A DNA stretch of 64,000 nucleotides. Origin: Lactobacillus johnsonii (GTDB lineage Bacteria; Bacillota; Bacilli; Lactobacillales; Lactobacillaceae). The notes beneath the pieces are model-generated. The model was given only the letters and a program-made list of their open reading frames with translations. It was not told the origin of the DNA and did not search any database. This document shows, piece after piece, positions 7,631 to 27,521 of the stretch. Within the stretch, counting starts at the first letter, position 1, and each line of letters opens with the position of its first letter. The DNA lies in the NCBI RefSeq assembly GCF_013487865.1, contig NZ_CP047409.1, forward strand, positions 1,178,001 through 1,242,000. Reading direction: 5' to 3'. Position numbers and translations under genes: made by a program.

Positions 7631-8509
7631 TTAAAGCTTTAATTTTCCCTCATTAATCAACTTCAAGGCCAATTGATACGTACTTTTTGCATCAGAATCT
7701 GCATGATGTGGATTTTGATTTTCAATTTTATATTCAGACAATACTGTACTCAACTTATAATTATCAAGAAATTTATTATTCTTTTTAATTATCGGAAGTA
7801 AATCTTTAGAAGTATTAATTAACCCAGAAATATTATTTCTTTTATAGGCTATATCCAAAAAACTAATATCAAATGTTAAATTGTAACCTAATAAAATTCG
7901 ATCACCCAGAAAGTCTTTCAGCATTTTTAAAACTTCAATTAAATTGCTTCCCTTTGATTTTAATATCTTCATATTCAAACCAGTTAATTCACTTACACCA
8001 GCCGGAATACAGTTTACATCCCTAATTAATTTATAAAATACATCAACTTTTCCATTTTTCAAGTACTTAACGGCACCAATAGAAAGAATCTCGCTTTTAT
8101 TGGGAGCTAAGCCTGTAGTTTCGATATCAATTACTGCAAACTTTAATAACGTTGAATTATGTAACACAGATCGTGAATTTACCTTAGCCTTATGATATTT
8201 TGCAGCATTACTAAACCCTAGTTTTAAATTTGGCGTTACATTAACATGTTTTAATAGAGGAATACCATCAAAATCTACTATTTTTCTGTCTAATCGAGTG
8301 GTTCGAAAGGTATACCCTAATTCATTATTCGTATTATAAACGAGAGTAGCTTCTCCTTGACCGATATTTTTTTGAACACGTTCCCACAATAGGTCTCTAA
8401 CTTTTGCATTAACACTTCCAACATAGATTCCAGTTTGAATTTCTTGACACCATTTTGTTAAATCACCACGTAAGGAAGCTGGTGTTTTGGATAGAGTAAT
8501 TACAATCAT
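7631..8509 (-). CDS. cas2: Cas2 fused to a DnaQ-like 3'-5' exonuclease
   Basis: The product has 292 residues, about three times a usual Cas2. Residues 1-95 are a type I-E Cas2 (MIVITLSKTPASLRGDLTKW, then GIYVGSVNAKVRDLLW). Residues 121-288 are a DEDDh exonuclease with D128 and E130 in VIDIETTG, D214 in NLTFDISF, and H268 and D273 in HHADSDA, so all catalytic residues are present. In the Streptococcus thermophilus type I-E system this fusion is known to trim prespacer ends for integration by Cas1-Cas2; the same role is inferred here. It is the last gene of the cas operon, five bases after cas1, with GAGGAG before its ATG. Confidence 0.95.
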   Translation of the reverse strand: MIVITLSKTPASLRGDLTKWCQEIQTGIYVGSVNAKVRDLLWERVQKNIGQGEATLVYNTNNELGYTFRTTRLDRKIVDFDGIPLLKHVNVTPNLKLGFSNAAKYHKAKVNSRSVLHNSTLLKFAVIDIETTGLAPNKSEILSIGAVKYLKNGKVDVFYKLIRDVNCIPAGVSELTGLNMKILKSKGSNLIEVLKMLKDFLGDRILLGYNLTFDISFLDIAYKRNNISGLINTSKDLLPIIKKNNKFLDNYKLSTVLSEYKIENQNPHHADSDAKSTYQLALKLINEGKLKL

Positions 8510-8514
8510 TAAAA

Positions 8515-10103
<1,589 letters not shown>

Positions 10104-10114
10104 TATTAACCTCT

Positions 10115-10825
10115 TTATATATTCGACATTATGTCATGCATTGTTTCAGCATGTTTATTTATTTGATTCTTCATTGGTATATATGTACTTACCACTTCAC
10201 GGTAATCATGATATCGATTTCTTTGGTCAAATGAGCCCACTTTATCCTTCACTTGAAATACAAAATGATCTCTTGCTCCAAGATTAGCATCATAAACGAG
10301 CTCTGCATTAAAACTAGAATGCTTTCTTTGATACCATTCGGCTGCTTGCCAATCCATTGATTTTAAAACATTTAATGGATTTTGATTATTAAACACTTCA
10401 ATTTCCAGTGGTCCAGCCGGAGGACATGAGCGTCTACCTAAAAATAATGAAAATTTAGGATGCTGCAAAGCATAATGAATTTTTTCGATGAGATCATCAT
10501 TTTCTGATCCAATTGCTACCATAAATATTGCATCCTGTAGATAATAGCGATACGTTAATTTCTTTGTTTTTTTTGTAGCACTTTTTGCATATTCAACGAT
10601 TTGAAAGTCATTTACTATTTGTCCCGGTTGATCACTTCTTACTGCAAACTCCAAATCATTTAATTTTAAGATTTTTTTATCATTACGATCATATCCTAAG
10701 GATGCAGAAATCATTCCAATTACTGCACTTTTAGTAGGATAAGGATTGGTAGTTCGTCTTTCAAAAGTAGCTTCATTACCATAAGCTTGAAGTGGCGCCT
10801 TTAATTTAATCGTCAGTGTCTTCAT
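10115..10825 (-). CDS. cas5e: Cascade subunit Cas5e
   Basis: The product has 236 residues and starts MKTLTIKLKAPLQAYGNEAT, followed by TNPYPTKSAVIGMISASLGY, the Cas5 (CasD) signature. It binds the 5' handle of the crRNA in Cascade. Its start overlaps the end of cas7e by 20 bases, and AGAGGG lies before the ATG inside cas7e. Confidence 0.94.
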   Translation of the reverse strand: MKTLTIKLKAPLQAYGNEATFERRTTNPYPTKSAVIGMISASLGYDRNDKKILKLNDLEFAVRSDQPGQIVNDFQIVEYAKSATKKTKKLTYRYYLQDAIFMVAIGSENDDLIEKIHYALQHPKFSLFLGRRSCPPAGPLEIEVFNNQNPLNVLKSMDWQAAEWYQRKHSSFNAELVYDANLGARDHFVFQVKDKVGSFDQRNRYHDYREVVSTYIPMKNQINKHAETMHDIMSNI

Positions 10826-11966
10826 TTTCTACCCTCTTAGCCACTACAGTAGAAACATCATTTAATAACTCATCAATATTTGTTTTTCTTTCTCCTACAG
10901 TTGTTACAAATCCTTTATTGGCATGAACAAAACTAGCTAATGGTTCACCTATCCAACTACTAGTGCTATCAAATTCTGCCTCTAATTGTTCAATAGATTT
11001 TTTAGCATAACCATTATTACTTTGGATCGGTCTTTCAAATGCTGAAATTAGGTTTACAGGAGTATCTTCTCTAATGGTTACTAAGATGTATTGAGGTAAA
11101 GTTTTATTCGCATAGGAATTTTGATGACCTGTAGGCATTGTCAAAGCAAAGTTTTTAATAAATTCTTTCAAACCTATTTGAGCTAACTCTTCTCCCAAAT
11201 TATGAATCAATTCATTCATATTTACATTTGCATATCTATATAAAGTAGAAGAATTATATTCAAGCGTTCCAAGCATGGCGGAACCTGATTCTTCAGAGGT
11301 TTTAGCGTCATCTACTGCTGTAAAGAAATCAAATTCTGGCACAACTTCATGAGTTGAGATAGCATGTGCTACTTGAGCAGAGGCTTCAACATTTAGTTCT
11401 GGATCATCTGCTACCATTCTACCAAAAAGTGCTAAATCTAATGATTGATTTCTATCTAATTCCTTTTTAGCTTCCTTTAAAACTTTCGTTGCTTCTTTTT
11501 TGTCTAATTCATCAATTTTATTAATTTCATCATTATTTAGAATATATTCTGCCAATTTTCTTAGTTGACTAGGACTAAAGAAAAGTAAGACTTTGGTTTC
11601 AAAATCTTTATCATTACTTTTATCATTTTTCTTTGCCTTATCAAACTTTAATCCCATATTAGATAAGACTTCTTTAGCTTTTTTGCGTGCATCATCAAAA
11701 CTTAAAGAAGAATCTTGTTTCATTAACTCTTTGGCCAATAAGGTAGCCGTTCGTTTAGTACGAAAGCCATTAAGCCAATCATGTTCTTTACTATCTTTTT
11801 TAAATCCTTCTCTAATCGCTTTTTTCCAGCTTTGTGATGACACACGTGATCTAGTAGCTCCTCCATAAATAGCAGTTTTTGGTGCACCAGTATCGTCTCT
11901 ATTGATATTTGATGATGGTACAGTTTGTAATACATGAATATCAACGTATAAGTTATTTTTTGTCAT
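10806..11966 (-). CDS. cas7e: Cascade backbone subunit Cas7e
   Basis: The product has 386 residues and starts with NNLYVDIHVLQTVPSSNINRD, followed by GAPKTAIYGGATRSRVSSQSW, the Cas7e (CasC) signature. Several copies polymerise along the spacer part of the crRNA, about one per six bases. The length is slightly above the usual 350-370 because of a lysine-rich insert near residues 110-125 (KAKKNDKSNDKDFE). The gene is the centre of a tightly coupled operon. Confidence 0.94.
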   Translation of the reverse strand: MTKNNLYVDIHVLQTVPSSNINRDDTGAPKTAIYGGATRSRVSSQSWKKAIREGFKKDSKEHDWLNGFRTKRTATLLAKELMKQDSSLSFDDARKKAKEVLSNMGLKFDKAKKNDKSNDKDFETKVLLFFSPSQLRKLAEYILNNDEINKIDELDKKEATKVLKEAKKELDRNQSLDLALFGRMVADDPELNVEASAQVAHAISTHEVVPEFDFFTAVDDAKTSEESGSAMLGTLEYNSSTLYRYANVNMNELIHNLGEELAQIGLKEFIKNFALTMPTGHQNSYANKTLPQYILVTIREDTPVNLISAFERPIQSNNGYAKKSIEQLEAEFDSTSSWIGEPLASFVHANKGFVTTVGERKTNIDELLNDVSTVVAKRVENEDTDD

Positions 11967-11968
11967 TT

Positions 11969-12577
11969 TTAATCCTCTCTGCTTTCTTTACTATTTATTT
12001 CATCGTTAAGCCAGAAATATTCTCTTCCCCATTTAATGGCCACTTTTCTAGCTGCTTCAAAACCTAATTGAAAATTATATAAATCATTTGCTAATTCAGG
12101 ATAATTAATTTTGGTTGCTGGATTATTAACTTTTATTATTTTAGTTAAACTTACTACCGATCTAGCAACTGCTTCTATATTCGTTGTACTTAATACAGAC
12201 TGCACACGTCTATCTAAAGCTTCTCGAAAGTGTTCATCTTTACGCAAAAATGATAGATTTCTAAACAACGATTGTGCGTTTTCACTATCATACTCACGAT
12301 CTCTTTCAATATCATTACCTTGCTCAAAAACAGAATAACATCGTAAGGCTGTAAAAATTGCTCGTTCTGAAACTGTTTGTTTACTATTTTCACCAAAGAT
12401 ATCTTTTTCTTTAATGTATTCAAATAGCAGTGGCCAAACGATAGTAGCTTGACGACTTAGAATAGAATTGGAACGTCTTAGAGCAGACAATATTGCTTTA
12501 TCATTACCCCCTCGTTCATGCAATTTTTTTATAATTTTATTGGTATTTCTTTCAATATTTGTCACCAAAATAATCAT
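11969..12577 (-). CDS. casB: Cascade small subunit Cse2 (Cas11e)
   Basis: The product has 202 residues and is mostly helical, with the Cse2 pattern DKAILSALRRSNS and FTALRCYSVFEQ. Two copies stabilise the R-loop in Cascade. The start is uncertain: AAGGAGG sits only two bases before the ATG at 12577, but is well placed for a TTG at 12568 or a GTG at 12565 in the same frame, so the true N-terminus may be three or four residues shorter. Confidence 0.9.
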   Translation of the reverse strand: MIILVTNIERNTNKIIKKLHERGGNDKAILSALRRSNSILSRQATIVWPLLFEYIKEKDIFGENSKQTVSERAIFTALRCYSVFEQGNDIERDREYDSENAQSLFRNLSFLRKDEHFREALDRRVQSVLSTTNIEAVARSVVSLTKIIKVNNPATKINYPELANDLYNFQLGFEAARKVAIKWGREYFWLNDEINSKESRED

Positions 12578-12593
12578 TCCTCCTTAAAATTTA

Positions 12594-14279
12594 TTATTTA
12601 ATATGACGAAATACATTTAATTTATACCAGTTAAAAATAGTAAAAATGTTATTTATTCCACTTCCTTCTTCTTTCGAACTTTCTTGTCCAATGATATCTC
12701 TTGGAGAAGCATTTTTTAGAACTTCCTCAGCTTTCGTTATAGAAATCCTCTTTAATATTTCTTTCCATTCAATTGTCTTGTCAGCTCGTTCTTGATCATT
12801 TCTTAAACTTGCTAGCCAAGTAAGAAATGGAAGGTTTAAACTTTCATAAAATTTAATAGTCGAATTATCAGCAGAATCTGTTCCATTTAAACCTCTTAAT
12901 TTACTAATATTATTAGTAAAAATCCAAAAATCTTTTCCTACTTGTTGAGTCAAATCAATCATATTTTCAATATCTTCTGGCCAATAGTCTTTTTTATTTT
13001 TATCAAAAAGTACATTTGCTTTAATCTTAAAGCAATCATTAACCTCAAATGTTGGTAACTGAGAAGAAGATTTGCCATCGCTAATTAATGTTGTAGTTCG
13101 CAAAGTTAAGGAAGTGTCTGTAGGAAGATATTCGTTATTTTGTACCTTTCTCAGCCATTTAATTATTTCTGGTTCATGCATATCTTCTAATTCCTCGGGA
13201 TCTGTAGTTCTAACATATTGCCCAAAATTTCTCCACATTGCTTTTGTTAGATCAGTCAAATGCTTAGTAGCAGGATAAACCTCCCCTGTTTTTTTGTTTT
13301 TACGCCAAGTAGTCATTGGCTCAATAAAGGCTTCCGCACTATCCAATTTTGGCAAACCTGCAGTAAAAATAATAGGTTTTTCATTTATCCATTCAATATG
13401 CAGCATTCTTGACCATAACGTATATAAAGTACTAATTGAAAGATCGCGAGCGAAAGGCTCATCTTTTAGGAACTCAATATATTCAAATGCGTTTTCGAAT
13501 TCCCAAAAAGGTTTTTCTTCTTTATATTCTTCTGAAAAAACCAAGTTCAACATTAAAGTCTGAAATAAGTTTTCACCTTGAGCAAATACGGGATTTAAAC
13601 CATATAGCCAACCGCTAGATACCGGTTTATTAATTAGCTTTGTTTTATCAGTTACTCCTGTAAAGCTTTGATAAGTTAGGATCCAGCGCACTAATTGAGC
13701 TAAGTTTATCTCATTTTTAGTCTGTCTTGTTTTAGGTGAAAAAATTGATAGACTATTATTACTTTCAGAAATAGTTCTGTTTATTTGTTTAACATCAACC
13801 GTTCCCTTGGGACTTTTGATATTAACTTTTTTATTAGCTGGTACTTCCTGATCATAAACTTCCTTATTAACCTGATAGAATGGATCATCCCCAAAAAAAT
13901 CAAACTTAGAACTATTTTCTTTTAAATATTGGAGAACCGACTTAGAGAATTGTCCATTTTTATATAAAAATTGCCACGTGTTTACTAAATCATCGTACTC
14001 ATAATCTTCTTCCTCTGCTTCTTTAAGATGCATTTTTTCATCAAGAGTTAACCATTCATAATTTTTTCCATTTGCATCAACTCGAGAGTATACAGTAGTT
14101 AAAATAGCAACAAGTAAGCGTAATATTACTAAATCTTGACTCGCCATATCACCAGCTAAGCGCTGGTAACTAGCAGCATTTTCAAAAACTTCTAATAATG
14201 AAACTTCCTTGGGATTTCCATCTTTGTCCAAGACTTGAATCCAAGGCTCAGTGACAAGATTAAAACTTTTTTTATCCAT
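12594..14279 (-). CDS. casA: Cascade large subunit Cas8e (Cse1)
   Basis: The product has 561 residues and starts MDKKSFNLVTEPWIQVLDKD, a typical Cse1 opening. The segment DFFGDDPFYQV at about residue 125 is also characteristic. The protein recognises the PAM and recruits Cas3. It overlaps the end of cas3 by eight bases and has GGAGGAGG before its ATG. Confidence 0.94.
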   Translation of the reverse strand: MDKKSFNLVTEPWIQVLDKDGNPKEVSLLEVFENAASYQRLAGDMASQDLVILRLLVAILTTVYSRVDANGKNYEWLTLDEKMHLKEAEEEDYEYDDLVNTWQFLYKNGQFSKSVLQYLKENSSKFDFFGDDPFYQVNKEVYDQEVPANKKVNIKSPKGTVDVKQINRTISESNNSLSIFSPKTRQTKNEINLAQLVRWILTYQSFTGVTDKTKLINKPVSSGWLYGLNPVFAQGENLFQTLMLNLVFSEEYKEEKPFWEFENAFEYIEFLKDEPFARDLSISTLYTLWSRMLHIEWINEKPIIFTAGLPKLDSAEAFIEPMTTWRKNKKTGEVYPATKHLTDLTKAMWRNFGQYVRTTDPEELEDMHEPEIIKWLRKVQNNEYLPTDTSLTLRTTTLISDGKSSSQLPTFEVNDCFKIKANVLFDKNKKDYWPEDIENMIDLTQQVGKDFWIFTNNISKLRGLNGTDSADNSTIKFYESLNLPFLTWLASLRNDQERADKTIEWKEILKRISITKAEEVLKNASPRDIIGQESSKEEGSGINNIFTIFNWYKLNVFRHIK

Positions 14280-17022
14280 CTTCCTCCTCCTTTTCGTACA
14301 TTAATCCTAATTTTGAAGAAAATTTTAAGTTAAATCCGTTTAAAGTAGTTAAATTATTCTCATTAAACTCTAGTGCTAAAGCACCACATAACCAAATATC
14401 CTCTTTCCATTTATTATGTAAAGATTGCATATTAGTCTCCAATTCTCTAATTGTTTTATCAATTAGATCTTCAATTTTTGAACTATTTACTATTGCAAAT
14501 GGTAATCGAATAGTTTGACCAGCTATTTCCTCACTGCTTACTTCTTCAATATTACGACCATCCATCAAAAAGGTTCCTTCACTAGTAGTTCTTAAAAGAA
14601 TCACTTCAATAGTTTCTTTTATATCTCGAACACAAGCAGCAGCATGATTGTCATCGTTAACATTAATTTGTACATCACTTAACCAACCAAATAAATTATT
14701 TCTGTCTTTTTCATTCGGATTTCCTATTTGAAATACTCGTGCTTTATTCTTAGATTTTTTTAAATCCTTTTCAAACTTTGCCTCAGCTTCAGCAATATCT
14801 TTAATATCTTTATCTACCTTAGGATCATATACCTTTTGTACTAATGGAGATACATCGTCAGGAATATTAATCTTATTTTTTAGAAAATGATCGGTTTTCA
14901 TTAATAAGTATTTTTCATAGATAAATTCATTTCCTTTCCCATAATCACCGTAGCCATTTATTCCTGTAATATACACTGTCGGCTTCGCTAAAGTTGTAGG
15001 TCGGGAAATTTTATGACGATGTAGTCTACCAATTCGCTGAATAATTAAATCTACTGGTGCAATATCAGTAAAAAGCACATCAAAATCAATATCTAGAGAT
15101 TGCTCTAAAACTTGCGTTCCGATAACTATCATTTTTTGGGGACGCATGCCACCCTTTCCAATTTTCGCTTGAAGTCCTTCTTCAATTTTTTCACGCTCTG
15201 GTGCTAAATAAGCAGAATGTAAAAGTAATACTTCAATGTTTTCAGGGACTAATCTTGCTAAGTCTTGAGCTCGTTTAACGGTATTAACAACTATTCCAGC
15301 TATTCCGCCATCCTCTATTTCGGCAACTGCTTTATTAATAATTTTTTCTTCATTTCCATTAAAACGAACAACATTAATCGTTCTATTTTCATCATTCGCA
15401 ATCGAAAACTCACTTACTTGTTCTAATTTGTTTCCATCCAGAATACTAAGTAAGGGATAGCCTTCATTAGCTTCCCAATTATCATTGGCTTTTATTTTTA
15501 TACTGCCATATTTTCCTTTCAGATAAGCTTTTAACAAATCATTTCTTTTTTTCTTAGGTAAAGTTGCAGACAAAGCAATTACTGGTACATGATATGCTCC
15601 TAACCATTTAATAGCTTTCTCTAAATATGAACTCATATAAGAATCGTACGCGTGAAGTTCGTCAATTATTACCACTTTATCACTAAAGCCTAAGTGTCTT
15701 AGAAAAAGATGTTTTTGCTTTAAGGCAGTGAGTAAGAGATGATCAATTGTTCCAACTGCAAAATGGGATAAACTCGATTTTTTTCCCGCAAACCAACTAT
15801 TAATTACTACCGCTCCATCTGTATCATCATAAATATTCTCGGCATAGGGTAATTTAGTATATGGTTTATTAAATTTTGCTTTACCTTGGAGCAATTTCAC
15901 ATCAGGATGTGCAGCTTGTTCTTTTGCTATACTATCAAGCCACTCTTTAACTCTTGAAAACATTGCGTTAGTTGTTGCTTGAGTTGGTAAACCCATATAT
16001 AAGCCGGATTTTCCTTGCTTAAAGGCTAGTTGTTCGGCTGCTGTCAATGCTAGCTCGGTTTTGCCAATTCCAGTCGGTGCCTCAATAATAACTAAGCCTG
16101 GATCATTAGCTTGAGAAATTGTTTCTGACATTTCTTTTTGCACTGGACGAGGAATAAAATTAAACCTTAAGCGATATTGTTCATTAACAGAAGCAATCTT
16201 TTCTGGCATCCATCGATCACTAATATCCCATTTTTTAATTGCTTGATGATAACGTTCTTCCATATTCAATTCATCAAAATCTTCTTCTAACGAAATCAAG
16301 GGAAATAATGATATATTGCTATAATTAGTTAATTTTTCGCTAGAGGCAAGCCAGTCAGCCATGATTAACATTCCCTCTAAAATTACTGCTTGCGGCAAAG
16401 TAACCTCTGGAACATCCTTAATATCATTATAACCACACAATGCTAGTCCATATTTAAAAAGATTATTTTGAACAGACTTCCACTCATGTTGAATTTTAGT
16501 ATCTGTGTCTCGGCCCCAAAGATTCGAAGCATAGATATTCAGTTGTTTAAAAGTGACATCTTTTTTTGGAGGTAAACCGTGATGGCCACCAATAATTGAA
16601 CCTATTGATTCATTTAATCCAAAAGATTCCAGTAAAGTTTCACCAGCAATGGGATGAAGTGACTTACGGACTCTATAGTTATCCATGGAGATGGACGAAA
16701 AACCTGCTCTTCTTAATTTTTCATTTATATCCTCATCCAAATCTTTATTCCTTGGAAAGGACTGTTTATATTGAAAAGCTGGCGTGGCCTTACCAAAATC
16801 ATGATAAAATCCCAAAAATCCTACCAGCTTTTGAGTATCTTCAGGAGAAAGATTTTGTTGCAAAATTTTTCTAGTACCTTCACTAATCCAGTTATTATAA
16901 AGCCACTGCATTACATTTTTAGTATCAATTAAATGCGCTACTAAAGGAAGCCAAAATTCTTGATCATCATGAACCGCTTTCTTTCCCCATAAAGCCTTAG
17001 TGGCCGGAAATAAGTTCACCAT
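14272..17022 (-). CDS. cas3: CRISPR nuclease-helicase Cas3
   Basis: The product has 916 residues. An N-terminal HD nuclease domain contains HLIDTK (about 30) and HDFGK (about 74). The SF2 helicase domain contains Walker A APTGIGKT (about 315-322), the DELH box (about 454) and motif VI QRIGRLHRH. Cas3 is recruited by Cascade to unwind and degrade target DNA. I set the start at the ATG at 17022, preceded by AAGGAG. The upstream in-frame ATG at 17055 is ruled out because it overlaps the -10 box (TATAATG). First gene of the operon. Confidence 0.94.
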   Translation of the reverse strand: MVNLFPATKALWGKKAVHDDQEFWLPLVAHLIDTKNVMQWLYNNWISEGTRKILQQNLSPEDTQKLVGFLGFYHDFGKATPAFQYKQSFPRNKDLDEDINEKLRRAGFSSISMDNYRVRKSLHPIAGETLLESFGLNESIGSIIGGHHGLPPKKDVTFKQLNIYASNLWGRDTDTKIQHEWKSVQNNLFKYGLALCGYNDIKDVPEVTLPQAVILEGMLIMADWLASSEKLTNYSNISLFPLISLEEDFDELNMEERYHQAIKKWDISDRWMPEKIASVNEQYRLRFNFIPRPVQKEMSETISQANDPGLVIIEAPTGIGKTELALTAAEQLAFKQGKSGLYMGLPTQATTNAMFSRVKEWLDSIAKEQAAHPDVKLLQGKAKFNKPYTKLPYAENIYDDTDGAVVINSWFAGKKSSLSHFAVGTIDHLLLTALKQKHLFLRHLGFSDKVVIIDELHAYDSYMSSYLEKAIKWLGAYHVPVIALSATLPKKKRNDLLKAYLKGKYGSIKIKANDNWEANEGYPLLSILDGNKLEQVSEFSIANDENRTINVVRFNGNEEKIINKAVAEIEDGGIAGIVVNTVKRAQDLARLVPENIEVLLLHSAYLAPEREKIEEGLQAKIGKGGMRPQKMIVIGTQVLEQSLDIDFDVLFTDIAPVDLIIQRIGRLHRHKISRPTTLAKPTVYITGINGYGDYGKGNEFIYEKYLLMKTDHFLKNKINIPDDVSPLVQKVYDPKVDKDIKDIAEAEAKFEKDLKKSKNKARVFQIGNPNEKDRNNLFGWLSDVQINVNDDNHAAACVRDIKETIEVILLRTTSEGTFLMDGRNIEEVSSEEIAGQTIRLPFAIVNSSKIEDLIDKTIRELETNMQSLHNKWKEDIWLCGALALEFNENNLTTLNGFNLKFSSKLGLMYEKEEEDG

Positions 17023-17053
17023 TAATTTCCATCTCCTTTTTGAATTCGCTTTC

Positions 17054-17082
17054 ATTATATCACAGTTAGCTTACTTTACACT
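17054..17082 (-). promoter_or_regulatory. cas operon promoter
   Basis: On the minus strand an extended -10 (TGATATAAT, -10 at 17054-17059) is followed about 30 bases later by the cas3 ribosome site. The -35 region (GTGTAA/AGTGTA, near 17076-17082) is weak and lies inside the sequence matched by the upstream crRNA-like element. Confidence 0.7.
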
Positions 17083-17090
17083 ATATTATT
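17066..17090 (-). promoter_or_regulatory. Putative Cascade target in the cas promoter, with AAT PAM
   Basis: On the minus strand AAT (17090-17088) is followed by AATATAGTGTAAAGT (17087-17073). The truncated spacer of the nearby crRNA-like element reads AATATAGTGTATAGT: positions 1-11 and 13-15 match and 12 does not. Binding here would cover the -35 and the spacer of the cas promoter. Inference from sequence. Confidence 0.6.
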
Positions 17091-17103
17091 ATTTATTTTT
17101 CTT

Positions 17104-17181
17104 AAAACTCCACAGTTGTGGAGAATACTTTCCGAACTATACACTATATTCGGATCACCTTCACTTCTGTGAAGAACACCT
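17104..17181 (-). ncRNA. crRNA-like RNA upstream of cas3 (CreR-like)
   Basis: Two degenerate CRISPR repeats lie on the minus strand. The first (17179-17152) reads GTGTTCTTCAC..GTGAAGGTGATCC, with the hairpin kept by compensating changes. The second (17128-17101) reads GTATTCTCCAC..GTGGAG and then runs into TTTT, making it look like an intrinsic terminator. Between them are 23 bases instead of 33-34. A TATAAT 7 bases before the first repeat would start the RNA close to it. CreR RNAs that guide Cascade to the cas promoter are known in several CRISPR types; this instance is inferred. Confidence 0.6.
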
Positions 17182-19585: not shown

Positions 19586-19755
19586 TATATTCACTCCAAG
19601 TACTATTCAGAATCATTTTACCTCTTTTAAAAACAAGTTAACAGCCAAATTTATTCTTATTATTTATAGGTATTTTAAGGTTAAGAGTTATTAAAACTCA
19701 TTAAAAATGTTAGTATTTATTTTGGGATTTATTATTACATTGGGATTTTCTTAGT
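19586..19755 (+). promoter_or_regulatory. Leader of CRISPR array 3 and divergent htpX upstream region
   Basis: An AT-rich stretch with no gene. On the + strand it ends TTGGGATTTTCTTAGT immediately before the first repeat, matching the end motif of the other leaders. It must also hold the minus-strand htpX promoter, which I cannot pinpoint. Confidence 0.55.
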
Positions 19756-20088
19756 CTATTCTCCACGGATGTGGAGATGATCCTATGCCCAGCCCGGTTT
19801 GTAGCCATGCAGTTTACTATTCTCCACGGATGTGGAGATGATCCTGGAAATCTGAACATTGATATTGATTCGGGAAACTATTCTCCACGGATGTGGAGAT
19901 GATCCTCACTGTCTGGCTCTTTCAATTTCAATCCGACACTATTCTCCACGGATGTGGAGATGATCCTTCTAGACGAACATTTAAACGACGACGGTAGCGC
20001 TATTCTCCACGGATGTGGAGGTGATCCTTTAGCTAGTTTTATGGGTGGCTTATTCATGCGCTATTCTCCACAGTCGTGGAGGCAATAC
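19756..20088 (+). CRISPR. CRISPR array 3 (type I-E), 6 repeats, + strand
   Basis: Repeats begin at 19756, 19817, 19878, 19939, 20000 and 20061, all with 61-base periods. They read CTATTCTCCACGG..GTGGAGATGATCC directly on the + strand, so this array is transcribed opposite to the other three. The last repeat (20061) is decayed in its 3' half (GGCAATAC), which marks the trailer end and confirms the direction. Every spacer begins with T. The repeat variant differs from arrays 1, 2 and 4 at its first base and in the loop (GGAT). Confidence 0.95.
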
Positions 20089-20134
20089 AAAATCTAACTA
20101 AGTACATTAATATTTTCCCATAATTATCCATATT

Positions 20135-20975: not shown

Positions 20976-21111
20976 ATATCGACCTACGTAGGTCTTTAAA
21001 CAAACTATTTCTATGTATTTTCGATGAGAGATGAGATTGTATAAGCCTTATGAAAGCATAGCACAATGAAAAGAAAAGAATTCGAAAAGTTTGGAAATAT
21101 ACATCAAAGGG

Positions 21112-21445
21112 AGTGCATCTCCACATACGTGGAGAATACGAAATACTTACGCTAGGTACCATGTGTACAGCAGGATCATCTCCACCTACGTGGAGAACAT
21201 AATTATTTGCGTTCTCGTGCATTCATCAATTCAGGATCATCTCCACCTACGTGGAGAACATGAGTAAAGTCAAAAAGCTAAAAGGTACTATTGAGGATCA
21301 TCTCCACCTACGTGGAGAACATCTACAATGCGAATGAGAGGGTAGCTAAGCCATTGGGATCATCTCCACCTACGTGGAGAACATCAGAGATTCATCAAAT
21401 CTATCTCCCTCGTTTAAGGATCATCTCCACCTACGTGGAGAACAT
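21112..21445 (-). CRISPR. CRISPR array 4 (type I-E), 6 repeats
   Basis: Repeats begin at 21112, 21173, 21234, 21295, 21357 and 21418. In crRNA sense (minus) they read ATGTTCTCCACGTAG..GTGGAGATGATCC. The repeat at 21112 is of the array-2 end type (AATAC) and has a changed first part (AGTGCA), marking it as the oldest. Every base after a sense repeat is T or C. It is the array furthest from cas1-cas2. Confidence 0.94.
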
Positions 21446-21778
21446 ACTAAATATTCTTTGTTCCTATCACATTCATAGTTTATAATACGACAATTTTTCA
21501 TTAGTTTTACTAAATTCATAAAGGCTTATTAAAAAATAATGATTTCAAAAATCATTTATATATTTTTTTGTTCATGGTTTTAACGCAAGTGATTACTGCT
21601 TCAATTAATAAAGGCAGTACACCTTTTAATTATATTTAATTTTCAAATCGCAAATAATCAATATTATGTAATTATACTGTACAAAATATCCTAAGTTTCA
21701 TTTTCTATTCTTTGCATCCTTATCAACCATTGCTAGTGAATCACGGACAAATAAATTTACTCCCTTAAAAATAATTAA
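21446..21778 (-). promoter_or_regulatory. Leader of array 4 and gene-free stretch
   Basis: The first part, on the minus strand, ends AATATTTAGT before the newest repeat, like the other leaders. Further up is a hairpin AATGATTT / AAATCATT followed on the + strand by a T-rich tail (about 21536-21570), possibly a terminator. No gene is visible. Confidence 0.5.
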
Positions 21779-23334
21779 TTATCTTCCAAGCAAATGAGTT
21801 TTAAGTATATTCTTTAAGGCGTCTCCTGAAGCCACTCTTATATCTGGGGTATCTTCTTGGCCGTTCCGAATATCTAAGATGACTTGTGCATTAATAATCC
21901 CTTTTTTCTCTAATCTATGCAAAAAGTAATCTACATCAAAAGTCGTAATAACATCATCAGCATAGTCTTCTCCGGTAATTCGGAATTCATAATCATCAAC
22001 ACTTTTTATCAATCTTTCATTAAAATTATGGGTAACTAGGTAATAGTAAACTTCCTGAATATCCTCCAAATTATTAGCTACAAATTGACTTAAAGCTAAA
22101 TTATAAAGTATTGTTAAATTAATCATGTAATTACTTGCATAGGGTGTAAATAAATCATTTTCTTGTAAATCAAGAAAATCTTGTCTCATTTTTTTCTTGA
22201 TTTTATCATCAGAAAAGATCCCGGCTACATTCAGATAATAATCTATTCTTTCTGTTCCTACATCTTCTCCTATTTCTTTTATCACTTGTCGTGCTGCATG
22301 TCCCTGAGGATGCTGGTCAAAATCACGTAAGTTATAGCACAACCTGTAGCCTAAATTACTATCATAGATATATGAACAAATTTTTTTCCAATTATCTTTA
22401 AAGTTAGACACATACCGTTCTAACCATTGTTGATCAAGATAATCTATAAAGGCATTCCCATCAGAAATAAAAGCTCCAATAATTGTATTAGGATTTATTT
22501 CCATATCTTGAGAAATAGATGTTTTTATTAAATTTTTATACGAAGAAGCCACTCTATCATACAGCTCTTCAATATTTTCAAAAGTTCCTCTGATAGTTTG
22601 AAACCGATTCATTTCTTTTCTATCTTCAGTAGTGATATTTACTCTTCTTCCATCTTCAGAGTAATATAAATTTTTCTTAAATTTATACACATCTTTTATT
22701 TGAGCCAATACATCATCTTCAATCTTGGGATCTTCTTCAAAAATAAATTTATCATACTCCTCTTTAAAATTATCAGATAATTCTATTCCTTTTTCTTTCT
22801 CATACTCTTCTAATCCATAGTCCTTTTCTAGCATGTAATCATCAATATTTTTCAAATCAATGATATTAACCGTTGACTTCCATTCGTCTCCTTCTGTTTT
22901 TTTAGTAAAAATTATAGGAGTCTCTTCTAATGCTTTGTCTACAGTTCTTTGATTTCTTGTATCATTAGTAAATTCAAAACCTGCATTGCAGAAACCTACA
23001 TAATCAACTCCCTTATCTTTAAAATAAGGCAAAATAAAATTTGTCAGCAAGTATTTTTTACTCTCAACTGTAGCTATTGACGAATATAAGTAATAATAAT
23101 CGATGATAGCAATACTGCTTCCACTATATTTTCTTCAGCGCCATTCACCAAGAAACAATATGCCTCTGCAATTATCTTTTTTTCTTCTTTTTCATCTTCA
23201 GTACTTAAGCTTAAAGTCGACTTATATACTCCATGATCATAATCTATATCTTTTACTTCGTAATTTTCTAACGTTAGTACTTCTTCTTTTATTTCCTTAT
23301 CTGTGAACGTAACGTTGGTATTTTTCCTATCCAT
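21779..23334 (-). pseudogene. Unknown gene with R-x4-H motif, frameshifted, behind a crRNA-like leader
   Basis: Two frames read as one gene of about 518 residues. The first (23334-23074, starting MDRKNTNVTF) ends after an AAAA run at 23129-23132. Adding one A there lets it continue as AEEKYSGSSIAIIDYYYLYS into the second frame, which stays open to 21779. The start at 23334 is set by GGAG eight bases upstream. No membrane segment is visible and the protein is acidic. The downstream part carries RDFDQH, an R-x4-H motif as in HEPN ribonucleases, in a helical context (LCYNLRDFDQHPQGHAARQV). I do not recognise the family. The frameshift may be inactivation, slippage or a sequencing error. Confidence 0.55.
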
Positions 23335-23351
23335 GGTTTTTTCTCCATTTA

Positions 23352-23463
23352 TTTTTTCCTCCACAAGCTGTAGAGATCACTTAATTTTAATCCTTTAATT
23401 AAAGGATCACCTCTATCAATTATAGAGATCACTGGCAATATCGTTCTCTATCTATGAGAACAG
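23352..23463 (-). ncRNA. crRNA-like element in the 5' leader of the unknown gene
   Basis: On the minus strand a 5' hairpin (GTTCTC..GAGAAC, 23461-23443) is followed by a degenerate CRISPR repeat (23432-23404: GTGATCTCTAT..ATAGAGGTGATCC). Next come 23 bases of pseudo-spacer (23403-23381) and a second degenerate repeat (23380-23352: GTGATCTCTAC..GTGGAGGAAAA). Both stems are kept by paired changes. Cas6e-type cutting would release a crRNA with handle GTGATCCT and a 22-base guide TTAATTAAAGGATTA.., leaving the mRNA with its own ribosome site. Confidence 0.55.
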
Positions 23464-23467
23464 TTTA

Positions 23468-23496
23468 ACTATAGCAGTAATTTCAAAAAATATCAA
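23468..23496 (-). promoter_or_regulatory. Promoter of the crRNA-like leader and the unknown gene
   Basis: On the minus strand TTGATA (complement of 23491-23496), a 17-base spacer and an extended -10 TGCTATAGT (-10 at 23468-23473). Transcription should begin near 23461, at the 5' hairpin of the leader. Confidence 0.7.
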
Positions 23497-23520
23497 ACTT
23501 AATAAAAGGATTAGATTTTT
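23496..23520 (+). promoter_or_regulatory. Putative Cascade target beside the -35, with AAC PAM
   Basis: On the + strand AAC (23496-23498) is followed by TTAATAAAAGGATTA (23499-23513). The guide of the crRNA-like leader reads TTAATTAAAGGATTA: only position 6 differs in the first 15, a position that is flipped out and unpaired in type I-E Cascade. The PAM touches the -35 of the gene's own promoter, so binding would repress it. Confidence 0.55.
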
Positions 23521-23815
23521 TACTTACTGCGTTATCCGTACAAAAATTTATTTTCAATAATGAATTTTGGGTACATAATTTTTCCTGTTTAGATCTTTTT
23601 TCCTTAAAGGGTTATCAAGCCAATGAAAATAAGGATCTCCTTATTTAAATGACTGAATTAAATTTCACATTTCTCGTTCTTATTGACATTTTTCTAATAA
23701 CTATAATGTACAATTAAGAGAAAATAGTATTATTTAAAATGTTTATTTCTATAAAAACTGGAGTATTTAATTATTTTTAATAATTTAATTTATACAAGGT
23801 CAGGTGATTATTAAT

Positions 23816-26432: not shown

Positions 26433-26528
26433 AACAAAGATAACTTGTGAAGGATTAAGCTGAGTTCCTGAATGGGAGTAAGGTATCGACCGAGAATTCT
26501 CATGCTCCTGGGGTTATCTTTATTTTTT
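26433..26528 (+). ncRNA. Candidate structured RNA next to the DUF3644 gene
   Basis: A roughly 90-base stretch begins after an extended -10 and is closed by the long-range inverted repeat AAAGATAAC (26437-26445) / GTTATCTTT (26513-26521), followed by ATTTTTTT. The inside can form GGGAG/CTCC and GAG..CTC pairings. It has no open frame with a ribosome site on +. Its terminator overlaps the end of the converging DUF3644 gene. I do not recognise an RNA family. Confidence 0.4.
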
Positions 26529-27521
26529 TGCTCTATTTTTATTCAATTCTTCTTTTATATGAATAATTATTTTAGGCTTCTTTATGATTTCTTCAACTAT
26601 AAAGTCTACTGTTTTTATTGAATACCCATATCTTCTTCCAATATGATAAAAACAACAATATTGATCATTTTGTTTTAGGTTGTAAAACTTTGCAAAAAGT
26701 TGAAAATCGTTGGTTGTAAAGATACCCTCAGTTTCTACCCCTTTGATTACTTTTATTAGTTTTATCTTTTTGACTTTTAACTTTTTGTTCACCAGACTTA
26801 TTATTTTTTTAGTGGTATAAATATAAATTGAATTGCTATCTTTAATATCACGTACTATAGCGATACTATTTTCAGCATTTTTATCTATTTTTACTTTTAA
26901 ATCAGCATCATTTGCTCTTTTTGTCAAAAGTAGGTGCGTTTCAATAGGAATTGAAAAGTTAGAATTTTCAGTTTGAATCTCTCCCTGAACTTCATTTCGT
27001 TCTCTGATCAGCCGCTCTGCTGTCTCTTTAGAGTATTTTGCTCTTACCCGTTCATCCGAAAGCTGATCTACATTTAAACTTAATGTTAAGAAACTTGAAG
27101 TTACTTCTTGTGTAATGTCTCTTCCATGAAATTCTTGTAATTTTTCAGCATAATTTAAAACACTCGCCTGGAATAAAGGGGCATAAATTGCTTCATAGTC
27201 TTCCGTAATAAAGTGTGTACTTGTATTTCTAAGCTCTATAATTCTCTCTAAATTGAGGCGAAGAGGATCATTTTTATTTGTAAATACTTTCCTTATACAA
27301 TTTTCTAAGGAAAGAGTTCTATCGGGCTTATCTTTAAAATAAATACTTTCTAGTCCATCTCTATTAACCAAATAAGCTTTTAACATCAATTCCCATGCAT
27401 TTGATATAAAAAATGCAAATCCTTCCGCCCTATATTTAATCGTAGGCTTATTATATATTTCCAAACCTAGTATGAATGCTTCGACACTTTTATTTACCAA
27501 CCTGGTTGAAATATTTTCCAT
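26520..27521 (-). CDS. DUF3644 HEPN-type protein
   Basis: The product has 333 residues. The N-terminal half (SVEAFILGLEIYNKPTIKYR, FFISNAWELMLKAYLVNRDG) matches DUF3644, a HEPN-fold family. The HEPN R-x4-H motif is R98-H103 in IIELRNTSTHF. HEPN proteins are often ribonucleases of toxin-antitoxin or abortive-infection systems. The C-terminal part (DLKVKIDKNAENSIAIVRDI; QYCCFYHIGRRYGYSIKTVD) resembles a DNA-binding or substrate-recognition domain, but weakly. Its promoter contains a 24-base perfect palindrome. A defence role is inferred from family and island. Confidence 0.75.
   Translation of the reverse strand: MENISTRLVNKSVEAFILGLEIYNKPTIKYRAEGFAFFISNAWELMLKAYLVNRDGLESIYFKDKPDRTLSLENCIRKVFTNKNDPLRLNLERIIELRNTSTHFITEDYEAIYAPLFQASVLNYAEKLQEFHGRDITQEVTSSFLTLSLNVDQLSDERVRAKYSKETAERLIRERNEVQGEIQTENSNFSIPIETHLLLTKRANDADLKVKIDKNAENSIAIVRDIKDSNSIYIYTTKKIISLVNKKLKVKKIKLIKVIKGVETEGIFTTNDFQLFAKFYNLKQNDQYCCFYHIGRRYGYSIKTVDFIVEEIIKKPKIIIHIKEELNKNRAKK

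What the first reader, a model, noticed from the sequence alone, without database searches (positions are those of the whole stretch)
23352..23520. Second crRNA-like element, in the mRNA leader of an unknown gene, aimed at its own promoter
A second pair of degenerate repeats again has exactly 23 bases between. Its guide TTAATTAAAGGATTA matches 23499-23513 at 14 of 15 positions, with the single mismatch at position 6, which type I-E Cascade does not pair. It is preceded by AAC, again AAY. The target touches the -35 (TTGATA) of a good promoter (TTGATA-17-TGCTATAGT) whose transcript would contain the element and then the gene at 23334-21779. Cas6e cutting would leave the gene's ribosome site on the mRNA. 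So Cascade could hold a gene silent and release it if Cascade is lost or blocked, like CreTA but with a protein-coding gene and the guide within its own leader.
Basis: partly seen in the sequence, partly recalled or inferred. Interest (0 to 1): 0.95.

Follow-up and report, generated by a model that had tools for sequence, protein, structure and literature searches.

The report
Gene silenced by its own CRISPR guide
In a lactic acid bacterium, the start of a gene's message carries two decayed CRISPR repeats around a short guide that matches the gene's own promoter, so the bacterium's CRISPR complex would likely keep this predicted toxin gene switched off and release it if CRISPR fails.

Summary
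On the minus strand (23432-23358) two degenerate type I-E repeats flank a guide matching 23499-23513 (AAC PAM, sole mismatch at position 6). This is the guide's best match in the 64-kb window (run 15, next 9); 0 of 20,000 shuffles reach it. In 78 I-E sequences from 76 Lactobacillaceae genomes I found 153 hairpin-plus-handle sites outside arrays; 20 have a self-target obeying I-E rules, against 0-1 with other PAMs or shifted guide starts. Nineteen of the 20 sit at a cas3/cse1 operon promoter (creR kind); this is the only one aimed at a non-cas gene. Related elements show guide and target changing together.

The gene's rare family has a GNAT-like N-terminal domain and a helical domain with an invariant R-x4-H (HEPN-like) motif. 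All three located copies lie beside CRISPR-Cas (I-E, I-E, II-A) and are interrupted; full-length relatives are in databases. Best reading: a Cascade-repressed protein-toxin module like CrePA, with the guide nested in the toxin mRNA's leader. Repression is well supported by sequence rules; toxicity and release are inferred. Against: no relative of this leader was found, the guide is palindromic, and the HEPN fold search was inconclusive.

The parts
23499..23513 (+). Target (protospacer start) of the guide, AAC PAM at 23496-23498
   Evidence: Run 15 with mismatch only at position 6; next best in the window 9
23468..23496 (-). Promoter TTGATA-17-TATAGT (TG before the -10); the PAM shares 23496 with the -35
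   Evidence: Consensus scan, 10 of 12; untested
23443..23461 (-). Extra hairpin GTTCTCATAGATAGAGAAC upstream of R1, possibly a third repeat remnant
   Evidence: Sequence and fold
23404..23432 (-). R1, degenerate I-E repeat ending GAGGTGATCC
23381..23402 (-). 22-nt guide TTAATTAAAGGATTAAAATTAA (T at 23403 in the PAM-derived position)
23358..23380 (-). R2, degenerate repeat with hairpin CTCTACA-GCT-TGTGGAG
23343..23346 (-). Ribosome-binding site GGAG, 8 nt before the ATG at 23334, downstream of the expected Cas6e cut
   Evidence: Sequence; the cut is inferred
23074..23334 (-). First piece of the gene (86 aa), GNAT-like domain start
21779..23050 (-). Second piece of the gene (423 aa) with the R-x4-H motif
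17073..17179 (-). creR-type element: R1 17152-17179, guide 17129-17150, R2 17108-17128, target 17073-17087 (PAM AAT) at the cas3 promoter
   Evidence: Run 15, mismatch at 12; conserved in G002 and G008
7631..17055 (-). I-E cas operon: cas3, cse1, cse2, cas7, cas5, cas6e, cas1, cas2 fused to an exonuclease domain
   Evidence: Pfam
21110..21448 (-). Nearest CRISPR array
   Evidence: crRNA strand inferred from repeat orientation

Best explanation
The leader of this gene carries a crRNA-like unit whose guide matches the gene's own promoter under type I-E pairing rules, and the likely working is that Cas6e cuts the guide out of the gene's own mRNA, Cascade carries it back to the promoter and blocks transcription, and the predicted toxin is made only when Cascade is lost, blocked by an anti-CRISPR or saturated. 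Shown by sequence: repeats, handle, PAM, guide-target match with the mismatch at the non-pairing position 6, a complete cas operon, and the same rules in 19 other elements. Inferred: promoter activity, processing, Cascade loading, repression, and the toxic role of the protein (GNAT-like domain plus a HEPN-like R-x4-H domain). The guide sits upstream of the ribosome-binding site, so cutting would free the guide and leave a translatable mRNA. In this strain the gene is interrupted, so here only the regulatory part could be working.
For: Best self-match by far in the window and 0 of 20,000 shuffles. 20 of 153 ectopic hairpin-handle sites have such self-targets; seven other PAM classes give 0-1, six shifted guide starts 0-1, other mismatch phases 5-7 against 20 (5 match with no free position), native array sites 3 of 1,664. 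Guide and target co-vary in L127/L128 (positions 1, 7, 10) and L064/L067 (5, 11), not at 6 and 12. Cas operon complete by Pfam. All three located copies of the gene lie beside cas genes of different types. R-x4-H invariant in 12 of 12 rows of A3, the form described for HEPN RNases. An I-E Cascade-repressed translated toxin with its target at the UP element is published.
Against: No second DNA copy of this leader was found, so conservation of this guide and target is untested. The guide is part of a perfect 18-base palindrome and the minimum-energy fold pairs the arms of R1 with R2, which could hinder loading or mark a protein operator. The other 19 elements sit at cas operons, so a toxin cargo does not follow from the element type. 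The relatives L003 and L004 show no such element in the kilobase before the gene. The HEPN fold search was inconclusive and the model is poor around the motif. The window copy is interrupted.
Confidence: 0.6

Rival explanations
1. Same Cascade repression, but the gene is a non-toxic defence or CRISPR accessory gene: its product rises when Cascade runs short and helps defence without killing the cell.
For: 19 of 20 elements of this build regulate cas operons; the family sits beside I-E and II-A loci; no toxicity test exists.
Against: An invariant RNase-like R-x4-H motif and interruption of all three located copies suggest a costly product; both are indirect.
Confidence: 0.22
2. A protein repressor's operator: the palindrome ATCCTTTAATTAAAGGAT in the leader and its half copy at the promoter are binding sites, and the repeat likeness is accidental.
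For: The 18-base palindrome in the leader; the target also resembles a direct copy of it.
Against: Does not explain the GAGGTGATCC handle, two flanking hairpins, AAC PAM, mismatch at position 6, or the 19 other elements that follow the same rules.
Confidence: 0.1
3. A decaying two-repeat CRISPR remnant whose spacer matches the promoter by chance, without present function.
For: Degenerate repeats, arrays nearby, interrupted gene.
Against: Native array sites give such self-matches in 3 of 1,664 cases; guide length is 22-23 as in the creR element and not 32-33 as in the arrays; 0 of 20,000 shuffles reach the match.
Confidence: 0.08

Closest known systems
CrePA (CRISPR-repressed protein toxin CreP with crRNA-like antitoxin CreA)
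   Same: crRNA-like guide directs the CRISPR effector to the promoter of a protein-coding gene near CRISPR-Cas (PMC12737573, section 10).
   Different: CreP is described as typically a KilA-N protein; this gene has no Pfam match and a GNAT-like plus R-x4-H build. The guide here lies in the gene's own 5' leader; where CreA lies in CrePA I could not read (original not held).
CreTA (RNA toxin CreT with CreA)
   Same: Two degenerate repeats, partial guide match at seed positions 1-5 and 7-11 next to a PAM, guide and cargo on one autorepressed transcript in Halorubrum/Haloarcula-type modules (PMC8501985, passages).
   Different: Cargo is a long protein gene, not a small RNA; guide precedes the cargo instead of following it; type I-E, bacterial.
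Citrobacter rodentium I-E Cascade-repressed toxin
   Same: Type I-E; target adjacent to a PAM and overlapping the UP element just upstream of the promoter; toxin must be translated (PMC12055562, passages).
   Different: There the ORF is 96 bp and the crRNA-like unit lies upstream on the opposite strand; here the gene is about 1.6 kb and the guide lies in its leader.
creR (autorepressing crRNA-like RNA of cas operons)
   Same: Same repeat, handle, PAM and pairing rules; this genome has one at 17073-17179, and 5 other creR-type elements have the guide inside the controlled leader.
   Different: creR targets a cas promoter; this element's target is 6.4 kb from cas3 at a non-cas gene.

Membership tests
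CrePA / Cascade-repressed toxin modules | crRNA-like unit with degenerate repeats of the host's CRISPR type | tested here: met
   R1, R2 and handle
CrePA / Cascade-repressed toxin modules | PAM-flanked partial match of the guide in the cargo promoter | tested here: met
   Run 15, AAC PAM, next to the -35
CrePA / Cascade-repressed toxin modules | Located in or near a CRISPR-Cas locus with a complete effector | tested here: met
   Complete I-E operon by Pfam; element 6.3-6.4 kb from cas3 and about 2 kb from an array
CrePA / Cascade-repressed toxin modules | Repression by Cascade and release on its loss or inhibition | not testable with these tools
   Needs an experiment
CrePA / Cascade-repressed toxin modules | Cargo is a toxin | not testable with these tools
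   Only motif evidence
CrePA (as typically described) | CreP with KilA-N domain | tested here: not met
   No KilA-N match in Pfam scans of 13 relatives; described only as typical, so this bears on the subtype
creR | Target in a cas operon promoter | tested here: not met
   Target 6.4 kb from cas3 at a non-cas gene; no second target of run 10 or more in the window or 20 kb on either side
HEPN RNase | R-x4-6-H with a polar residue after R | tested here: met
   R[ND][FY]DQH invariant in 12 of 12 rows of A3; definition
HEPN RNase | HEPN four-helix fold with the motif at the end of helix 3 | tested here: inconclusive
GNAT acetyltransferase | GNAT fold in the N-terminal domain | tested here: met
GNAT acetyltransferase | Acetyl-CoA binding motif and activity | not tested
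   By eye no clear Q/R-x-x-G-x-G/A in the alignment; the motif is recalled

The most novel reading that the evidence does not exclude
A self-silencing mRNA: a new family of CRISPR-guarded protein toxins (GNAT-like plus HEPN-motif) in Lactobacillaceae whose own 5' leader is a minimal CRISPR array, so that each stray transcript makes the guide that shuts its promoter, and any loss or inhibition of Cascade turns the same mRNA into a suicide message; the family also settles beside type II-A loci.
Probability: 0.4. Interest if true: 0.85.

Novelty: new variant of a known kind. Interest (0 to 1): 0.75.

Why it matters
If true, it brings CRISPR-guarded protein toxins to the type I-E systems of lactic acid bacteria, adds a new cargo family, and shows a very tight form of the circuit: one transcript that is guide precursor, mRNA and regulated gene at once. 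It would give these bacteria a second line against anti-CRISPR phages and make intact cas genes costly to lose. The survey also gives a simple rule (hairpin, GTGATCC-like handle, AAY PAM, mismatches only at every sixth base) with clean controls for finding such elements in I-E genomes.

Tried and rejected
A decaying array with a chance self-match was judged unlikely on the native-site control (3 of 1,664) and shuffles. A homologous leader was sought in 75 genomes of the genus: 21 genomes other than the own one matched by short stretches; I looked at 9 of these 21 and none of the 9 was a crRNA-like leader. A II-A-like repeat in the kilobase before the L003 gene and an I-E-like repeat in the kilobase before the L004 gene were sought by local alignment: no score stood out from shuffled repeats. 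The protein was not found in the plasmid and phage collections or in viral contigs. Rfam at gathering scores gave nothing in the window. No clear PDB relative by sequence (best E 0.2); no Pfam family at its cut-off. A region search with residues 255-480 gave only members already known. HEPN proteins do not stand out in the fold searches.

Full report
What is there. The window is 64 kb of a 1,995,616-base single-contig genome. It belongs to the family Lactobacillaceae, since the tool puts the L. fastidiosus contig (54,583 bases, G338:C19) in the same family; the genus is not named. The window has a complete type I-E cas operon (7631-17055) and several CRISPR arrays with repeats like GTATTCTCCACGTATGTGGAGGTGATCC. 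Native repeats are followed by T or C in 31 of 31 counted cases, which fits a PAM ending in Y whose last base is copied into the array.

The element. On the minus strand, R1 (23432-23404), a T at 23403, a 22-base guide (23402-23381) and R2 (23380-23358) follow each other. R1 keeps the ten bases GAGGTGATCC. In the centroid fold R1 and R2 each form a hairpin and the guide with its handle a third; the minimum-energy fold instead pairs the arms of R1 and R2 with each other. The guide matches the plus strand at 23499-23513 behind AAC, its only mismatch at position 6. I-E Cascade does not pair every sixth base (established structural knowledge, recalled). The target lies just upstream of the -35 TTGATA of a promoter whose transcript would hold R1, guide, R2, a GGAG ribosome site and the ATG at 23334. 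With positions 6, 12 and 18 left free, the match runs for 15 bases; the next best in the window is 9. None of 20,000 shuffles of 23335-23620 reaches 15.

A family-wide test. Cse1 (PF09481) is found in 75 of 397 Lactobacillaceae genomes. I scanned the window plus 77 fetched stretches: 78 sequences from 76 genomes. One of the 75, G408, was left out because its match lies split on two contigs; G002 and G008 were added because they hold a creR like this genome's. Outside arrays there are 153 sites with a hairpin of 5 or more pairs before [AG]TGAT[CT]C. Twenty have a target within 700 nt with an AAY PAM and run 11 or more; of 1,664 array sites 3 do. Six shifted guide starts give 0-1; seven other PAM classes give 0-1; moving the free position to another phase gives 5-7, close to the 5 that match with no free position at all. 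A further site, L109, has run 10. The window creR with L135 and L136, L104 with L108, L127 with L128, and L064 with L067 are related, so there are about 15 independent guide groups among the twenty by eye. The related ones add evidence: guides of L127 and L128 differ at positions 1, 7 and 10 and their targets at 1, 7, 10 and 14 (14 lies beyond the L127 match); L064 and L067 guides differ at 5, 6 and 11 and targets at 5, 11, 12 and 16 (16 lies beyond the L067 match). In G008 (L136) the creR target differs from the guide at 6 and 12 only.

What the elements control. Sixteen of the twenty targets lie at or within 250 nt before the estimated cas3 start; L131 lies before cse1; in L115 and L137 one ORF stands between target and cas3 (an OrfB-type piece and a PemK/MazF-like toxin respectively). 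I count these 19 as the creR kind. The window element is the only one aimed at a non-cas gene, 6.4 kb from cas3. The stretches were about 20 kb around cse1, so more distant elements would be missed. Six of the twenty have the guide downstream of the target, inside the transcript they would control: the window element, L104, L108, L127, L128 and L137. Leader nesting is therefore a recurring layout, here placed on a non-cas gene. In the related genomes G279 and G130 the leader-nested cas guide has a second target (run 14, mismatches only at 6 and 12) in front of a small zinc-ribbon membrane protein gene past the cas genes.

How it most likely works. Leaky transcription makes an mRNA whose leader Cas6e would cut at R1 and R2. 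The guide would load on Cascade, return to the promoter and occupy the stretch just upstream of and touching the -35, as proposed for the C. rodentium I-E case, where the target overlaps the UP element (PMC12055562, passages). Loss, inhibition or saturation of Cascade would lift this and yield an mRNA that keeps its ribosome site. Each step after the sequence match is inference. I prefer a toxic product over a harmless accessory one at somewhat better than two to one.

Compared with what is known. CreTA, CrePA and creR are established (PMC8501985 and PMC9458426, passages; PMC12737573, abstract, sections 9 and 10 and passages). The original papers of CrePA and creR were not held. The layout 'guide in the 5' leader of a protein toxin' did not appear in what I read; paper searches made. 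I cannot exclude that the CrePA paper describes it. I call it a new variant of a known kind.

Limits. No other DNA copy of this leader could be reached, so conservation of this very guide and target is untested. The palindrome in the guide leaves room for a protein operator. The strain's own gene copy is interrupted, which fits a costly gene but also plain decay.

Noticed in passing
   Followed up: yes
L138 661 and 739-1164; L140 2251 and 2328-2753: In two related genomes the cas-leader guide has a second target (run 14, mismatches at 6 and 12) in front of a 141-aa zinc-ribbon membrane protein gene: possibly a second Cascade-repressed non-cas gene.
   Followed up: partly
L137 8424-9216 (L. fastidiosus): A leader-nested self-targeting element is followed by a PemK/MazF-like ORF and then cas3, so a known toxin family may be under Cascade control with the cas operon.
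   Followed up: partly
L070 6457 and 8852; L115 7615-8267: Mobile-element genes (a transposase; an OrfB-type ORF) lie between guide and target or between target and cas3.
   Followed up: no
L017 8366-9088; L018 8649-9404: The gene's GNAT-like N-terminal domain occurs fused to a RelB antitoxin domain, in L018 beside what looks like a cytosine methylase and a restriction enzyme gene.
   Followed up: partly
window 26520-27521: DUF3644 protein with a restriction-endonuclease-like C-terminal domain, a PDC-S19 defence candidate, about 3 kb from the element.
   Followed up: no
window 7631-8509: cas2 fused to an RNase T / DEDDh-type exonuclease domain.
   Followed up: no
window 19752-20089: A CRISPR array on the opposite strand from its neighbours, with its own repeat variant (CGGATG loop).
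   Followed up: no
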